From Fimbriimonadaceae bacterium (lineage in GTDB: Bacteria > Armatimonadota > Fimbriimonadia > Fimbriimonadales > Fimbriimonadaceae): 64,000 bases of DNA. The stretch lies in NCBI GenBank assembly GCA_019638795.1, contig JAHBTB010000004.1:62001-126000 (forward strand). Direction: 5' to 3'. Shown piece by piece: positions 2,057 to 32,074 of this stretch. The position numbers and the translations under genes were made by a program. Below the pieces are notes generated by a model that was given only the letters and a program-made list of their open reading frames with translations, had not been told where the DNA came from and did not search any database. The stretch's first letter is position 1. Each line of letters starts with the position of its first letter.

Positions 2057-2991
2057 ACACCGGATGGTTCGGCGTCCTCATCACCCTGCTGATGGTGGCG
2101 TTCGTGCTTTTGAACATTGCCCGTGCGAAGGGAAAGAAGGAACTCTTTATCCGGCGGATCGCCGGCCTGAACGCCCTTGACGACGCCATTGGACGCGCCA
2201 CCGAAATGGGCCGGCCGATCCTGATGGTTCCGGGCATCGGTGCGCTTAACGCCATCTCAGTCCAGGCGATCAATATCTTCAAGCAGGTCGCCAAAACGGC
2301 AGCGCAGTTCGGCACCCCGATCCGGATCTGCTGTGCCGACGCGGCGGTCTACACCGTCGCCCAGGAACTGATCCGCGACGTCTATCAGGAGCAGGGGATG
2401 ATCGAGCGGTTTGACGCCCAGACCGTCCAGTTCATCAGCGACCGCCAATTTGCCTTCGCTGCCGGCGTCAGCGGTATGGTCCTCCGCGACCAAGCGGCGG
2501 CGTCGTTCCTGCTTGGCGAGTTCTACGCCGAGTCGTTGATCTTTGCCGAGACGGCCAACGCCATCGGTGCGATCCAAATCGCGGGTTCGACTAAGACGGC
2601 TCAGACGCCGTTCTTCATCGCGGCATGCGACTATGTCCTGATCGGCGACGAGTACTACGCCGCCAGCGCCTATCTCACCCGGGAGCCCGTGCTCGTCGGG
2701 AGCCTGATTGGTCAAGACTGGGGCAAGATTCTGATCGCCCTTCTCGTGACGGTCGGGTTCCTGTTCAACTCGATCGAGCGGGTCCAGCCGGCCACCCAGC
2801 ACCGCGACGAGGACGACAAAGGCAACGCGGTCTGGAACCAAGTCGATCCGGCCACGGTGAAGGAGAATGACAAGCTCAAGAAAGCCTCCGACACCTTCAT
2901 GTACCAAGTCTTCAACCCCTTCATCACCGAAGACATGAAGAAAGTCGAACGACAAAAGGACCCCAACGCGCCGGTGGAGGAAGGCAAGTGA
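2044..2991 (+). CDS. DUF6754 family membrane protein
   Basis: This 315-residue protein matches my memory of DUF6754: an N-terminal membrane helix (residues about 7-27), a Rossmann-like domain beginning GRPILMVPGIGALN (residue about 57), the segments GTPIRICCADAAVY, FYAESLIFAETAN and QIAGSTKTAQTPFF, then EYYAASAYLTREP, and a second membrane helix near residues 229-244 (GKILIALLVTVGFLFN), ending in a charged tail. No enzymatic role is known for the family. It is embedded in a block of membrane-protein genes with 13-nt and 4-nt overlaps on its two sides, which suggests a stoichiometric membrane complex. Confidence 0.85.
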   Translation: MQYLDTGWFGVLITLLMVAFVLLNIARAKGKKELFIRRIAGLNALDDAIGRATEMGRPILMVPGIGALNAISVQAINIFKQVAKTAAQFGTPIRICCADAAVYTVAQELIRDVYQEQGMIERFDAQTVQFISDRQFAFAAGVSGMVLRDQAAASFLLGEFYAESLIFAETANAIGAIQIAGSTKTAQTPFFIAACDYVLIGDEYYAASAYLTREPVLVGSLIGQDWGKILIALLVTVGFLFNSIERVQPATQHRDEDDKGNAVWNQVDPATVKENDKLKKASDTFMYQVFNPFITEDMKKVERQKDPNAPVEEGK

Positions 2992-3905
2992 CCGAACTTC
3001 TTGCCCAAGCCCGCCTGACGTTCTTCGGCATGACGCCGAACAGCCCTGAGCTTTGGGTGAAGATCGCCGTCACCTTCTTTCTCGGCGTGGTCGTCATGGT
3101 CAGCCTGACCAAGGTGCCGCCCCGGTTTCGCCGCTATGTCACGTTGGCGTTCACCTTCGTCTCCGGGCTTTTCTATGTGCTGCTGTGGCTGTGGCCGGTG
3201 CCCATCGCCCGGGAGCCGGGGCAGTTACCCAACAACGGAGTCGAGGCGTTCGGCTTCTGGCTCGACGACGCGGTCCCTCGCGTCGCCGACGTCGCCCAGA
3301 TCCTTACCGCGTTCTTGCTGGGGCTCGGCATCATGAGTCTTCTCACCGTCCACAGCCAGCGGATCCGGCGCAAGGCACCCGACTGGAAGTTCAGCGTGGT
3401 GCTGATGGTGTCGTTGCTGACGATGGTCTCGTTTGGCTACGTGGACTGGATCCAAAGGAAGTTCCAAGACCCCAAGGGCCAATTGCTGGAAATGGCGAAC
3501 TGGGGGCCGGTCCAGTATGGGCAAGACCTCCTCTTCGACGGCGCGTACCAGCAGATGGAGGCGGCGATGTTTTCGACGATCGCGTTCTTCATCCTTTCCG
3601 CGGCCTACCGGGCGTTCCGGATCAGGTCGATCGAATCGACCGTGCTCATGGGGAGCGCGCTGATCTTGATGCTCAGTCTGATGGGAGCCCTCGACTTTGT
3701 CTGGACATCAGGGGTGGATCACATGATCGCCCAGACGCACATCGTGTTCTTGGAGAACCTGAAGATCAGCGAGATAGCCAGTTGGGTCAAGACGGCGCTA
3801 CAGACTCCGAGTATCCGGGCCATCGAGTTCGGTGTCGGCTTGGGGTCGGTCGCCATGGGCCTGCGCATATGGCTCGGCCTTGAGCGTGGTGGGGTGAGCG
3901 CCTGA
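2988..3905 (+). CDS. Uncharacterised multi-pass membrane protein
   Basis: The 305-residue product has about seven hydrophobic segments (roughly residues 22-45, 52-72, 99-122, 134-152, 191-212, 215-240 and 275-298) with short charged loops between them. No transporter signature or catalytic motif was recognised. The start codon overlaps the DUF6754 stop (ATGA), and its own stop shares one base with the next start (TGATG), the usual mark of translational coupling. It is most likely the integral-membrane core of the complex encoded by 1315-5627. Confidence 0.8.
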   Translation: MTELLAQARLTFFGMTPNSPELWVKIAVTFFLGVVVMVSLTKVPPRFRRYVTLAFTFVSGLFYVLLWLWPVPIAREPGQLPNNGVEAFGFWLDDAVPRVADVAQILTAFLLGLGIMSLLTVHSQRIRRKAPDWKFSVVLMVSLLTMVSFGYVDWIQRKFQDPKGQLLEMANWGPVQYGQDLLFDGAYQQMEAAMFSTIAFFILSAAYRAFRIRSIESTVLMGSALILMLSLMGALDFVWTSGVDHMIAQTHIVFLENLKISEIASWVKTALQTPSIRAIEFGVGLGSVAMGLRIWLGLERGGVSA

Positions 3906-26643: not shown

Positions 26644-26720
26644 CTAGGTTCAAAAGGATTGAAAACCTAGTGGGTTTTGAGGGCCATGGGACTCTGTAAG
26701 GATGCGAAATGGGCGATAAT
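26644..26720 (+). promoter_or_regulatory. Promoter region with inverted repeat before the large beta-rich protein gene
   Basis: CTAGGTT (26644-26650) and AACCTAG (26664-26670) form an inverted repeat with a 13-nt centre, possibly an operator. GATAAT at 26715-26720 is a candidate -10, giving a leader of about 15-20 nt before ATG 26743. Confidence 0.35.
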
Positions 26721-26742
26721 AGAGCCTGGGCAGGTCACGACC

Positions 26743-29700
26743 ATGAGGGTCACGAGGCAGACACGGCGGTTAGGGCTAGCGGTACTCGCGTTAGCCTCGG
26801 TCGTGGCGCATGGCCAAGCGGCCGACCAAAACCCCGCTGAGACGTCCCCACCGCCGGTCGGCGGCAAGGCCTCGATGGACTTGGTCCGGTTGAGCCCGGG
26901 CACCATGGTGGTCCCGCTTCGGCAAGGCCATCTGGTCCTGCACTCCGAGTCTGTCGACTTGGACGGGCGGAACCTCGTCCGTGACCGTGACTACAGCATC
27001 GACTACGAGGCGGGCAGCATCGTCTTGCGCGTGCCGTTCACCCCGGGGCAGGGCCTGCGGGTCAACTACCGGTACGACGACAAGCAGGACAGCAAAGGGG
27101 TTTACGCCCACGGTGCCGGCTCCAGTAAGTTTTCTGGATTCAGTTTCGACTTCGCCGGGGGTGCCAAGGCCGTCTTCGGTCTAGGTCTCGCGGAAAGGAC
27201 GGCAGGCGGGACCCTGTTGTCATCAAACGTCTACGGCTTGGCGAACAGTTTCAGCCTGTCTGGAGGCGGCTCACTCAAAGGCCTCTTCATGGTCGGGGAC
27301 CGGCACAAGGCCGACGTCACCAACCTCTTCGACGGCTCCAAGAACACGGAGAAGGTCGAGGAGGGCCAGGGCACCGCGATCGTGCAGAGCCTCGCGACGA
27401 AGGTGCTGGGCGGCAATTTCACCGCCAACTACCAGGACATTGACGACCGGTTTGGCGGATTCCAATCGTTTGCTTCGGCAGGTATGTCAGCGGCCGACAT
27501 CGACACCTTGGCCAAAGAGAAGGGCCTGAAGCGAAGTTCATTCCGGCTGACCGATCTGAAAGCCGGCGGGCTTAAGCTCAGCGGCGGTGTCCAATCGGTC
27601 GGCGACGACACGGGCGGCGTCTCGTGGCGTGACTACGGCATGTCGTTGGGCGGCTTCAGCTTCACTTGGGACTCCCGCTCTGTCGACCCGACGTTCAACC
27701 GGTTTGCCAACTTGCGGGAGCAAGACCGCAACCAACTCGCACAGGAACGCGGCCTCACGTTTGACAACATCGGGGCCAAACAGCAGTTCAAGAACGGTGC
27801 GATCGAGTTCAAGGACGCCCAAACCCGCGACCAGAACGGGACGGGATTGTTCCGCCGCGCCCTTTCCTTCAACATGGGCCCCAGCAAGGGCTACTTCACC
27901 GACCAGAAGGTGACCGCCGGTTTTTCGCGGATCGGCAGTCTGCGCGACCCGGACAAGGGTCAGTTGGCCAAGGAAATCGGCCTGTCCCGTCAGTCTTTCG
28001 GCTTCGAGAGTCCGCTGGCCAAGGGCTGGAACCTCAAGTACGACAACAACCGCCTGATGAGCGACACGGGCGATGTCAAGGCCATTGAGTTCGCCCTGAC
28101 CAGCCCGAAATGGAGCTTTGAGCATGGTCGCTTTGAGGCCGACTCCGGTTTCACCTCGTTCAACGCCTTTGCCGGCGGCGAGGTGCAAAACCACGTCAAG
28201 TCAGTGCTCGGTGCCGCGGGCGGACACGCTCAAGGGAACGACTATGGTGCCTTGGGCAATTCGGCCGGACTGGACCGGTCGTGGTGGAAGTTTGGCCTTG
28301 ACCTTGGCAAGTCGACGAAGCTGAACTACAGCAACTACAGCGTCGCCGCCGAGGCTGGTGGCGCCCGGCTCGATTCGATCGGGATTGATTCGGCCAAGTA
28401 CAAGGTCAACTTCGCCCAACAAGACGTCGGTGCGCAGTTCGGGGCCACCTCACGGCTATTGCCCACCGAACAACGCTCACTCGGTATCGCCGACGGCCTG
28501 AAGAGGACGATGCTGAATGTCTTTGCCGACCTCGGCAAGAACCGGTCGCTCAGCCTGGACACGATGCACGCCGACGACTTGACCGGTGAAGCGGCCCGCA
28601 CGAATTTCAAGTATGCCGACAAGGGCTTCGCCGCCACCTACGCCCGGCGCAACGTCTCGTCGGCGTTCAGTGGCCTGGCGACCTTGGTCGACACCGAGCG
28701 GGACGTGATGCGCCAACTGATGGGCTATGACCAATCGGCATGGTCGGTCACCTGGCAACTGATGCCTTCGCTGAAGCTTGACCTCCGGCACAACGACGAC
28801 CAGAACACTGAACTCGGCCTCTTTCGGGAGAACGACAGCAAGCTCATCGAGTACCGCCTCGACAAGCTGACATCCTTCTCCTACCAGACCTTGGCCAGCC
28901 GGGTCAACGACATTGACCATGTCAACCTGGAGCAGTCCGCCCAGCGCTTCTTTGTCGCCCGAGACTTTGGCAAACTGGGCAAGCTGACATTGACCAATGA
29001 GCGGGCGACCTTCGGTGGGGTCGACGACAACCAGCCGGATTCCAACCGTCAAGCCGTCAACTACCAGGCAGACCTGAGCAAGACGACCTCGCTCTCGACG
29101 ACCCAGAGCCAGACCAGGTACAGCAACGGCGAACGCGAGACGACGACCTCAAACACCATCGCCCAGCAACTGAACCCGCGGGTCAAGGTGAGCCTGACCG
29201 ACGAACGGACCCTGCGGGACGGCGAGAAACCCGACGAGGCGAAGAAGAACCTCGGCGTGTCCATCGACTTTGGCAAGGGGATCAAACTCGACGTCAACCA
29301 GGCCCGACAGTTTGCCGACGGTGCCACCGGCACGACGAAGGAGTCCGTTTCACTGACCCCGGGTCAGATCCAGGGGGTCGCGGTCGAAGGTGCTTCCTAC
29401 ACCCACAACGGCTGGGACGACCTCCGCGACCAGAGCGTCGGTGTCTTCAGCTTCAAGAATGTCAAGCCGTTTGAACTCGGGTCTATCAAGGACATCCGGT
29501 TCAGCTATTCGGCCGACACCGCGCGTGACAACTACGCCTGGCAGAAGGAGAACCGCCGGATCGGTTTTGGCGCCTCCTACGGCAACATCGGCTTTGGATT
29601 TGACTACTTCAGCCAGGTTGCAGGTGACGGCTTCCGCGCGATCGACCGCGTCTTCAATCTGACCACGGACAAGACTGGGAAGGCCGCCGTCCGTGGCGAA

Positions 29701-30222
29701 CTGAAGTACGGCGTCCGCACCTTGCCGACCGACGACCAGGTGATGATCCGCGACTACGCGGTGTCCATCCAGTTCAACGACCATGCCCAATTAGTGCACC
29801 AACTGGTCACCAACCCGCTCCAACAGCGGAACGACGTGATCTTGGGCTCGGTGCCCGTCGACGAGCGCAAGAACATCTGGTCGTTCAAGTACTTTAAGGA
29901 CAAGAACTTCAAGTTCGACATGAGCTTCAACGAGGTCCAGAGGGACGCCGTCGCGCAGTCTCTGTACCGGGAGGCAAAGGTGGACACGACGTTCTTCGCC
30001 AGCAACCCGTCGCCTCTCAACCTCAGCTACAGCCTCTTGCAATGGGACCGGAACGGCGAGCGCCAGACCGCCCATAAGTTCGGCCTTCGGTTCGACCAGC
30101 GGCCAGGAAAGAACCAGTCCCTGTCGTTCTGGCTGGAGAACCTCAACTGGGGCAACAGCCGCCCCGTGGGGTCCAACCTGCAGAACTGGGGTATGCGGCT
30201 GGACTACTCTGTCCGGTTCTGA
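26743..30222 (+). CDS. Large exported beta-rich protein with 76-residue repeats, probable outer-membrane protein
   Basis: The ATG at 26743 gives 1159 residues starting with a signal peptide (MRVTRQTRRLGLAVLALASVVAHG, cut near residue 25). The in-frame ATG at 26677 would bury the signal and is rejected. After a short linker comes a strand module with LVRDRDYSIDYEAGSIVLRV, which resembles modules of SprA-like surface proteins. The rest alternates short strands and turns, as in beta-barrels, and ends in MRLDYSVRF with a terminal phenylalanine, a common outer-membrane insertion signal. Six units spaced 228 or 288 nt apart are described separately. I know no named family; an outer-membrane barrel is the best inference. 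Confidence 0.8.
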   Translation: MRVTRQTRRLGLAVLALASVVAHGQAADQNPAETSPPPVGGKASMDLVRLSPGTMVVPLRQGHLVLHSESVDLDGRNLVRDRDYSIDYEAGSIVLRVPFTPGQGLRVNYRYDDKQDSKGVYAHGAGSSKFSGFSFDFAGGAKAVFGLGLAERTAGGTLLSSNVYGLANSFSLSGGGSLKGLFMVGDRHKADVTNLFDGSKNTEKVEEGQGTAIVQSLATKVLGGNFTANYQDIDDRFGGFQSFASAGMSAADIDTLAKEKGLKRSSFRLTDLKAGGLKLSGGVQSVGDDTGGVSWRDYGMSLGGFSFTWDSRSVDPTFNRFANLREQDRNQLAQERGLTFDNIGAKQQFKNGAIEFKDAQTRDQNGTGLFRRALSFNMGPSKGYFTDQKVTAGFSRIGSLRDPDKGQLAKEIGLSRQSFGFESPLAKGWNLKYDNNRLMSDTGDVKAIEFALTSPKWSFEHGRFEADSGFTSFNAFAGGEVQNHVKSVLGAAGGHAQGNDYGALGNSAGLDRSWWKFGLDLGKSTKLNYSNYSVAAEAGGARLDSIGIDSAKYKVNFAQQDVGAQFGATSRLLPTEQRSLGIADGLKRTMLNVFADLGKNRSLSLDTMHADDLTGEAARTNFKYADKGFAATYARRNVSSAFSGLATLVDTERDVMRQLMGYDQSAWSVTWQLMPSLKLDLRHNDDQNTELGLFRENDSKLIEYRLDKLTSFSYQTLASRVNDIDHVNLEQSAQRFFVARDFGKLGKLTLTNERATFGGVDDNQPDSNRQAVNYQADLSKTTSLSTTQSQTRYSNGERETTTSNTIAQQLNPRVKVSLTDERTLRDGEKPDEAKKNLGVSIDFGKGIKLDVNQARQFADGATGTTKESVSLTPGQIQGVAVEGASYTHNGWDDLRDQSVGVFSFKNVKPFELGSIKDIRFSYSADTARDNYAWQKENRRIGFGASYGNIGFGFDYFSQVAGDGFRAIDRVFNLTTDKTGKAAVRGELKYGVRTLPTDDQVMIRDYAVSIQFNDHAQLVHQLVTNPLQQRNDVILGSVPVDERKNIWSFKYFKDKNFKFDMSFNEVQRDAVAQSLYREAKVDTTFFASNPSPLNLSYSLLQWDRNGERQTAHKFGLRFDQRPGKNQSLSFWLENLNWGNSRPVGSNLQNWGMRLDYSVRF
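27523..28950 (+). repeat. Six diverged 76-residue repeats inside the beta-rich protein
   Basis: The marker G-[LY]-x-x-[ST]-x-[FW] recurs at 27523, 27751, 27979, 28267, 28495 and 28723. Spacings are 228, 228, 288, 228 and 228 nt, that is 76 residues with one 96-residue unit. Units end in a helix-like segment such as LREQDRNQLAQER or LRDPDKGQLAKEI. A weaker copy at 27235 (GLANSFS) lies 288 nt before the first. The pattern 288-228-228 thus occurs twice, a 744-nt higher-order period. The repeats are too diverged to see at DNA level. Confidence 0.6.
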
Positions 30223-31718: not shown

Positions 31719-31866
31719 GGTGCTTTTGGATAGCCAAAGCACGAGGACGGCCTGACCCCAGCAGATAACCCACCTAGTCACCTCGCGGTCAGCAACGGTG
31801 CCTGAGTTCAAACGAACTCAGGTAACCACGCTGGTTTCAGCATGGTAGACCGCATGGTGAGTGCGG
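31719..31866 (+). promoter_or_regulatory. Run of hairpins in the intergenic leader before a 32-codon gene
   Basis: Four potential stems lie in order: 31720-31742 (GTGCTTTTGG with CCAAAGCAC, one bulge), 31801-31822 (CCTGAGTTC-AAAC-GAACTCAGG, perfect 9 bp), 31830-31841 (GCTG-GTTT-CAGC) and 31850-31866 (CCGCA-TGGTGAG-TGCGG). No T run follows any of them. The last three fall within 66 nt and end 15 nt before GGAGG of the small gene. The arrangement suggests a structured 5' leader or small RNA. I could not match it to a known riboswitch class. Confidence 0.4.
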
Positions 31867-31895
31867 CATACAGAGGGTGTTGGAGGCTGTAACTC

Positions 31896-31994
31896 ATGTA
31901 TGAAGTCGTGGTCATGGCGATTGCCCTCGCCTCTCTGGTCGGCGGGTGGGGTCTCGTCAAAGAGGCTCTGAACCAGTCGCAACGCAAAGCTTAG
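31896..31994 (+). CDS. 32-residue single-helix membrane peptide
   Basis: The frame begins ATG TAT GAA and encodes MYEVVVMAIALASLVGGWG followed by LVKEALNQSQRKA. It has one membrane helix (about residues 4-21) and a basic tail, so the tail should face the cytosol. A perfect GGAGG (31882-31886) sits 9 nt before the ATG, one of the best ribosome binding sites in a window where most genes lack one. The frame lies between the M28 peptidase and an ABC exporter and has its own hairpin leader and a terminator-like hairpin downstream. No family was recognised. Confidence 0.55.
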   Translation: MYEVVVMAIALASLVGGWGLVKEALNQSQRKA

Positions 31995-32039
31995 TCAACT
32001 GCTCCGTACCCTCTCCTATCCCTCAAGCCCCTAAAATGG

Positions 32040-32074
32040 CCCTCGGCGAAAGCCGGGGGTCTTTGATCGTTTTT
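32040..32074 (+). terminator. GNRA-capped hairpin with T-rich tail
   Basis: CCCTCGGC-GAAA-GCCGGGGG (32040-32059) forms an 8-bp stem with one wobble pair, followed by TCTTTGATCGTTTTT. It probably terminates the small-gene transcript. A TAAAAT just upstream (32032-32037) could instead be a -10 box for the exporter gene, which would place the hairpin at the 5' end of that message. Confidence 0.5.

What the first reader, a model, noticed from the sequence alone, without database searches (positions are those of the whole stretch)
31719..32074. Self-contained small unit: hairpin leader, strong ribosome binding site, 32-residue membrane peptide, terminator
The 386-nt gap between the M28 peptidase and an ABC exporter holds four stems in a row, a perfect GGAGG nine bases before an ATG, a 32-codon frame with one membrane helix and a basic tail, and a GNRA-capped hairpin with a T-rich tail. 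The strong ribosome binding site stands out in a window dominated by leaderless genes. The unit could be a regulated small membrane protein, a toxin-like peptide with an RNA control, or a modulator of the adjacent exporter.
Basis: partly seen in the sequence, partly recalled or inferred. Interest (0 to 1): 0.65.

Follow-up and report, generated by a model that had tools for sequence, protein, structure and literature searches.

The report
Small membrane protein gene, flagellin-type promoter
The gap holds a real, previously unclassified 32-residue membrane protein gene, found as a single copy across an order of bacteria, whose upstream DNA carries the same repeated control sequences as the flagellin genes, so it is probably a part or helper of the flagellum rather than a toxin or an exporter helper.

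Summary
The 32-codon frame is a gene: 10 synonymous against 3 amino-acid changes in 26 codons between two congeners, and one clear homologue in 62 of 113 genomes of the order (Fimbriimonadales). It matches no Pfam, NCBIfam, PHROG or PDB family. Neighbours change from genus to genus, so the ABC exporter is only a positional neighbour.

The 'hairpin leader' is not a conserved RNA structure: no covariation, and ordinary folding energy across homologues. What is conserved is an array of 15-nt direct repeats (CYRGYAANNNYRCYGR; 121 sites in 41 of 41 upstream regions, 6.6 expected) at fixed spacing from a GG-N11-TG core. A motif trained only on peptide loci found 46 sites against 4.7 expected upstream of flagellin genes, including flagellin genes of this genome. 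All 15 genomes without flagellin lack the peptide (Fisher 1.8e-6, not corrected for phylogeny).

Best reading: a monocistronic, probably flagellum-associated single-helix membrane protein, transcribed from a flagellin-type promoter with an upstream activator array and ended by its own terminator. What the peptide does, and which sigma factor reads the promoter, are inferred or open.

The parts
31773..31790 (+). degenerate first repeat (unit A), CCTAGTCACCTCGCGGTC
   Evidence: in register, 15 nt before unit B in the array alignment; weak in this genome, strong in relatives
31788..31805 (+). repeat unit B, GTCAGCAACGGTGCCTGA (14.6 bits)
   Evidence: EM motif; the pair with unit C is the only in-register pair of 18 bits or more in the 64-kb window, both strands
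31818..31835 (+). repeat unit C, TCAGGTAACCACGCTGGT (8.5 bits), exactly 30 nt after unit B
   Evidence: fixed B-C spacing across genera
31864..31879 (+). core element CGGCATAC-N6-TG (GG 31865-31866, N11, TG 31878-31879), putative core promoter
   Evidence: TG lies exactly 11 nt after GG in 23 of 36 homologous upstream regions, at most 5 for any other distance; 45-46 nt after unit C
31882..31886 (+). GGAGG, possible ribosome binding site, 9 nt before ATG; whether it lies in the transcript depends on the unmapped start site
   Evidence: direct reading
31896..31994 (+). gene for a 32-residue single-helix membrane protein, MYEVVVMAIALASLVGGWGLVKEALNQSQRKA
   Evidence: homologues in 62 of 113 order genomes; 10 synonymous against 3 amino-acid changes with the congener
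32040..32074 (+). intrinsic terminator: GC-rich hairpin 32040-32059 with interrupted T-rich tail 32060-32074
   Evidence: a comparable stem downstream of most homologues although neighbours differ (34 of 54)

Best explanation
A stand-alone gene for a conserved single-helix membrane protein of the motility regulon. Upstream DNA carries an array of 15-bp direct repeats, most likely sites for a flagellar transcription activator, at fixed distance from a core element (GG-N11-TG); the same repeats, and in several cases the same core, lie upstream of flagellin genes. Transcription would start at or just after this core, so most of the 'hairpin leader' would be promoter DNA and not message, and end at the hairpin after the stop codon. 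The peptide is made when late flagellar genes are expressed and probably acts at or near the flagellar motor or export gate in the membrane. Shown: conservation, purifying selection, one copy per genome, the repeat array and its spacing, sharing of the array with flagellin genes, absence of the peptide from genomes without flagellin, terminator. Inferred: that the repeats are activator sites in DNA, the start site, the flagellar role. Unknown: the sigma factor and the molecular partner.
For: Peptide: purifying selection; 62 of 113 order genomes, almost always one clear copy, none convincing outside the order in a phylum search. Array: 121 sites in 41 of 41 upstream regions against 6.6 expected, spacing 15 nt 38 times and 30 nt 20 times; spacing to the core 45-46 nt; GG-N11-TG in 23 of 36. 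Link to motility: a model of the array searched through 85 genomes rings at the peptide loci and, as its best extra hit, upstream of a flagellin gene (G083, E 1.3e-6), with a weaker one at another flagellin gene (G082, E 0.005). The motif trained on peptide loci gives 46 sites against 4.7 expected in 23 flagellin upstream regions and 31 against 5.7 in another set. Flagellin genes L222 (this genome), L223, L229 and L232 carry GGGAACAA-N6-TG, the core seen at the peptide genes of G105, G104 and G108. Peptide in 62 of 98 genomes with flagellin and 0 of 15 without.
Against: 36 flagellated genomes gave no peptide hit (lost, or too diverged to see). The co-occurrence test is not corrected for phylogeny; the genomes without flagellin cluster in about five lineages. 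No flagellar gene is a regular neighbour of the peptide gene. The f2 family has the peptide and the core but hardly any repeats (0.42 sites per locus against 0.28 shuffled). Only some flagellins carry the array; others in the same genomes have a textbook sigma-28 promoter. Weak array hits exist at a non-flagellar gene (113-aa protein in G102 and G103). Genome G077 has peptide and flagellin but no sigma-54 hit.
Confidence: 0.7

Rival explanations
1. A structured RNA leader (riboswitch or translational control by hairpins that hide the ribosome binding site) governs the peptide.
For: The window's leader folds better than shuffles (z -4.4), as does the congener's. Some relatives have helices around the ribosome binding site, read by eye.
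Against: No covariation in the repeats (observed equals expected) or between repeat B and the core; mean z -0.79 against controls -0.50 and -0.15; filler of constant length but unconserved sequence between repeats and core; no Rfam match.
Confidence: 0.08
2. The repeats are sites for an RNA-binding protein in a long 5' leader, shared with flagellin messages.
For: All repeats point the same way; in f2 flagellins a related motif, AGCAAATTTGCGGAG, lies just downstream of a sigma-28 -10 element, inside the presumed leader.
Against: Fixed distance to a promoter-like core and variable distance to the start codon; in f2 the remaining repeat shifts by about 10 nt, one DNA turn, relative to the core (read).
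Confidence: 0.15
3. A type I toxin-like membrane peptide with an RNA antitoxin.
For: Size, one hydrophobic helix, strong ribosome binding site, own terminator.
Against: Single copy, conserved across an order, absent from all 15 genomes without flagellin; no conserved pairing signal was seen.
Confidence: 0.03
4. A small modulator of the downstream ABC exporter.
For: The exporter is the neighbour in several genera.
Against: Most genera have other neighbours; a terminator separates the two; the control region is flagellin-type.
Confidence: 0.04

Closest known systems
Sigma-54 flagellar regulons with enhancer-binding activators (Caulobacter FlbD binding ftr sites; PMC3930126)
   Same: Several activator-type sites upstream of late flagellar genes at a roughly fixed distance from a two-block core; sigma-54 (PF04552) is present in 95 of 113 genomes and in 61 of the 62 peptide genomes.
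   Different: The core GG-N11-TG is 2 nt longer than the canonical -24/-12 core. Canonical TGGCAYRN4TTGCW sites are near control level in most f1 genomes tested but common in f2 genome G041 (13 against 2). No activator was identified.
Sigma-28 (FliA) flagellar promoters
   Same: The same genomes use them for another flagellin class, e.g. TAAAGCTT-N11-GCCGAAGAT in this genome (L230); several f2 peptide genes have TAAA, TAAC or TACA 16 nt before CGGCATAA, read by eye.
   Different: The f1 core GGAAYAA-N6-TG does not match GCCGATAA, and a repeat array lies upstream.
Single-pass small membrane proteins with known roles (KdpF, CydX, AcrZ, SpoVM types; from general knowledge)
   Same: About 30 residues, one helix, short charged tail.
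   Different: No sequence relation found in Pfam, NCBIfam, PHROGs or PDB; the weak B12D/NDUFA4 lead failed profile comparison (probability 0.4%).

Membership tests
structured RNA leader / riboswitch | base pairs kept by covariation in homologues | tested here: not met
structured RNA leader / riboswitch | folding stability above shuffles across homologues | tested here: not met
   mean z -0.79, controls -0.50 and -0.15
structured RNA leader / riboswitch | match to a known Rfam family | tested here: not met
flagellar (flagellin-type) regulon | control element shared with flagellin genes | tested here: met
flagellar (flagellin-type) regulon | gene present only where flagella are | tested here: met
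   62 of 98 against 0 of 15; not corrected for phylogeny
flagellar (flagellin-type) regulon | expression follows flagellar regulators; mutant affects motility | not testable with these tools
   needs experiment
sigma-54 promoter | GG and GC separated by 10 nt (-24/-12) | tested here: not met
   GG-N11-TG instead of GG-N9-TG
sigma-54 promoter | sigma-54 encoded in the genome | tested here: met
sigma-28 promoter | TAAA-N15-GCCGATAA | tested here: inconclusive
   absent by reading from f1 peptide genes; loose variant in f2
type I toxin | antisense RNA antitoxin; toxicity on overexpression | not tested
   no RNA data; distribution argues against it
known small protein family | profile match in Pfam, NCBIfam, PHROGs or PDB | tested here: not met

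The most novel reading that the evidence does not exclude
The peptide is a new structural or regulatory component of the flagellum in Armatimonadota, and the 15-bp repeat array plus GG-N11-TG core is an undescribed flagellar promoter class, perhaps read by a sigma-54 holoenzyme that accepts a spacing 2 bp wider than in model bacteria.
Probability: 0.25. Interest if true: 0.75.

Novelty: new variant of a known kind. Interest (0 to 1): 0.52.

Why it matters
Small membrane proteins are easily missed by annotation. This one is conserved across an order and tied to motility by shared control DNA, which gives it a testable role. The repeat array is also a handle for finding the flagellar regulon of a little-studied phylum, and its core element tests how strict promoter spacing really is.

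Tried and rejected
Riboswitch or structured leader: rejected on covariation, folding statistics and Rfam. Hairpin in each 15-nt repeat (wobble-compatible by eye): rejected, observed pairs equal expected. An 18-mer match in several genomes (query 39-56): looked like coding coincidence in the copies read. Array as coding pentapeptide repeats: frames are interrupted (TGA inside unit B in several genera). B12D/NDUFA4 relation: rejected. TANNNT (-10) between array and start: none conserved. Canonical sigma-54 core: spacing wrong. Tandem unit pattern elsewhere in this genome or window: none. A flagellin-promoter pattern allowing 3 mismatches gave no clear further regulon members.

Full report
What is there. 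The gap between the M28 peptidase (ends 31708) and the ABC exporter (starts 32095) is 386 nt long and contains the frame, the GGAGG and the hairpin as described. The window lies in a 2.7-Mb genome of the Fimbriimonadaceae (Armatimonadota), judged from named homologues found with the peptide.

The peptide is a gene. In the congener found (G001) the same gap carries a 33-residue homologue; 10 of 13 codon differences in the first 26 codons are synonymous. A profile of three peptides found homologues in many genera of the family, and wider profiles extended them to three families of the order. The family consensus is about M.Y..VA.AVA.AA..GAW.L.K(D/E)AL: one hydrophobic helix, then a short charged tail. 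There is one clear copy per genome with few exceptions; no convincing homologue was seen outside the order among 291 genomes of the phylum. An additional member in G023 was found only through its upstream array. No library of families or solved structures contains it, and the weak B12D lead failed a profile-profile test.

It is a stand-alone unit. Flanking genes cluster into many kinds: ABC exporter in several genera, metH divergent in others, an mraZ-like gene, a deacetylase-like gene, feoA/feoB in f2. These names rest on reading the sequences; only window genes were run against Pfam. A GC-rich stem follows the stop codon in most homologues (34 of 54 with few or no shuffles as good). The exporter is therefore a positional neighbour.

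The upstream region is not a conserved RNA. The window folds well (z -4.4), but only its own genus and a few others do; over 30 homologues the mean z is close to flanking controls. Column-pair analysis found only conserved pyrimidines opposite conserved purines. The tempting hairpin in each repeat (GGYA-ANNN-TGCY) shows the pairing expected by chance from its base composition.

What is conserved is a linear code. An EM motif search over f1 and f5 upstream regions converged on CYRGYAANNNYRCYGR with almost invariant G, A and C positions: 121 sites in 41 of 41 regions, 6.6 expected. Successive sites are 15 nt apart in 38 cases and 30 nt in 20. An independent count with a fixed consensus gave 2.06 hits per f1 locus, against 0.23 in shuffles and 0.14-0.33 in flanking controls. 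Repeat C lies 30 nt after B, and a core element follows 45-46 nt after C, with filler of fixed length but free sequence (that scan lightly favoured these distances, whereas the distances were not imposed). The core is GG, 11 nt, TG in 23 of 36 promoters (core positions were chosen by the GGAA part, and the TG distance was not imposed). In the 64-kb window the only in-register pair of repeats of 18 bits or more is this one.

The code belongs to flagellin genes too. A sequence-only model of the A-B-C array, searched in 85 family genomes, rang mostly at peptide loci. The best extra hit (G083, E 1.3e-6) and a weaker one (G082, E 0.005) lie upstream of flagellin genes; several other weak hits lie inside coding frames and look like chance. 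Scanning flagellin upstream regions with the motif trained on peptide loci gave 46 sites against 4.7 expected in 23 regions and 31 against 5.7 in a second set, about half f2. Flagellin L222 of this very genome reads CCCAGCAATTGTGACAGGGAACAAGACACGTGT, with the same GGGAACAA-N6-TG core as the peptide genes of G104, G105 and G108. Other flagellins of the same genomes have a classical sigma-28 promoter (L230), so the array marks a separate flagellar promoter class.

Co-occurrence. Flagellin is found in 98 of 113 order genomes; the peptide in 62 of those 98 and in none of the 15 others (Fisher 1.8e-6). Sigma-54 is present in 61 of 62 peptide genomes. These tests ignore phylogeny, and sigma-54 itself follows flagella, so they do not say which sigma factor reads the core. 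The core is 2 nt wider than the sigma-54 consensus; canonical sigma-54 sites are near control level in most f1 genomes tested and clear in one f2 genome. Known systems in which sigma-54 activators bind upstream sites of late flagellar genes (FlbD and ftr in Caulobacter, PMC3930126) are the closest functional parallel. No activator was tested here, so membership is not claimed.

Mechanism proposed. A flagellar regulator binds the repeats and activates transcription at the GG-TG core when late flagellar genes are switched on; a short message encoding the peptide ends at the hairpin; the peptide inserts into the inner membrane, tail inside, and serves the flagellar motor, export gate or its control. 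The first half rests on shared cis elements; the second half is inference. In this genus the GGAGG may or may not be in the message: with a start about 12 nt after TG it would be excluded, with a start at TG it would be included. This cannot be decided without 5' end mapping.

Limits. 36 flagellated genomes gave no peptide hit; the f2 family retains the peptide and core but little of the array; start codons of several homologues were chosen by eye; many of the genomes are metagenome assemblies in many contigs.

Noticed in passing
L222 and L223 (flagellin genes of G000 and G001), about 40-50 nt before the start codon: Hairpin-like CCCCAAGGACGGGG with AAGGA in the loop, resembling a CsrA binding site, in flagellin leaders; similar AGGA loops in L210 and L212.
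   Followed up: no
G041 (f2), e.g. C1:1529418-1529433, 1378021-1378036, 1247835-1247850: Near-identical canonical sigma-54 promoter sequences TGGCACGAAAGTTGCT at several places (13 pattern matches, 2 in the control); one lies about 1.3 kb before a flagellin gene.
   Followed up: no
L162 (G102) and L163 (G103), array about 160 nt before a 113-aa frame: The same 15-nt repeat array upstream of a 113-residue protein without a Pfam match (MYLLTWNHIDRQIEASFGGKVTLAEANVF...), a possible further regulon member.
   Followed up: partly
L028 (G009:C54), about positions 2600-3000: CRISPR-like array with repeats GTTTACCTTAGAGGAGCCTGGGAGCCACCCAAAAC.
   Followed up: no
window 26677-30222 (+): A 1181-residue open frame without any Pfam match.
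   Followed up: no
L110 (G002), directly before the peptide start: Perfect 9-bp stem GTCTCTACC...GGTAGAGAC enclosing the core element, seen only in this genome.
   Followed up: no
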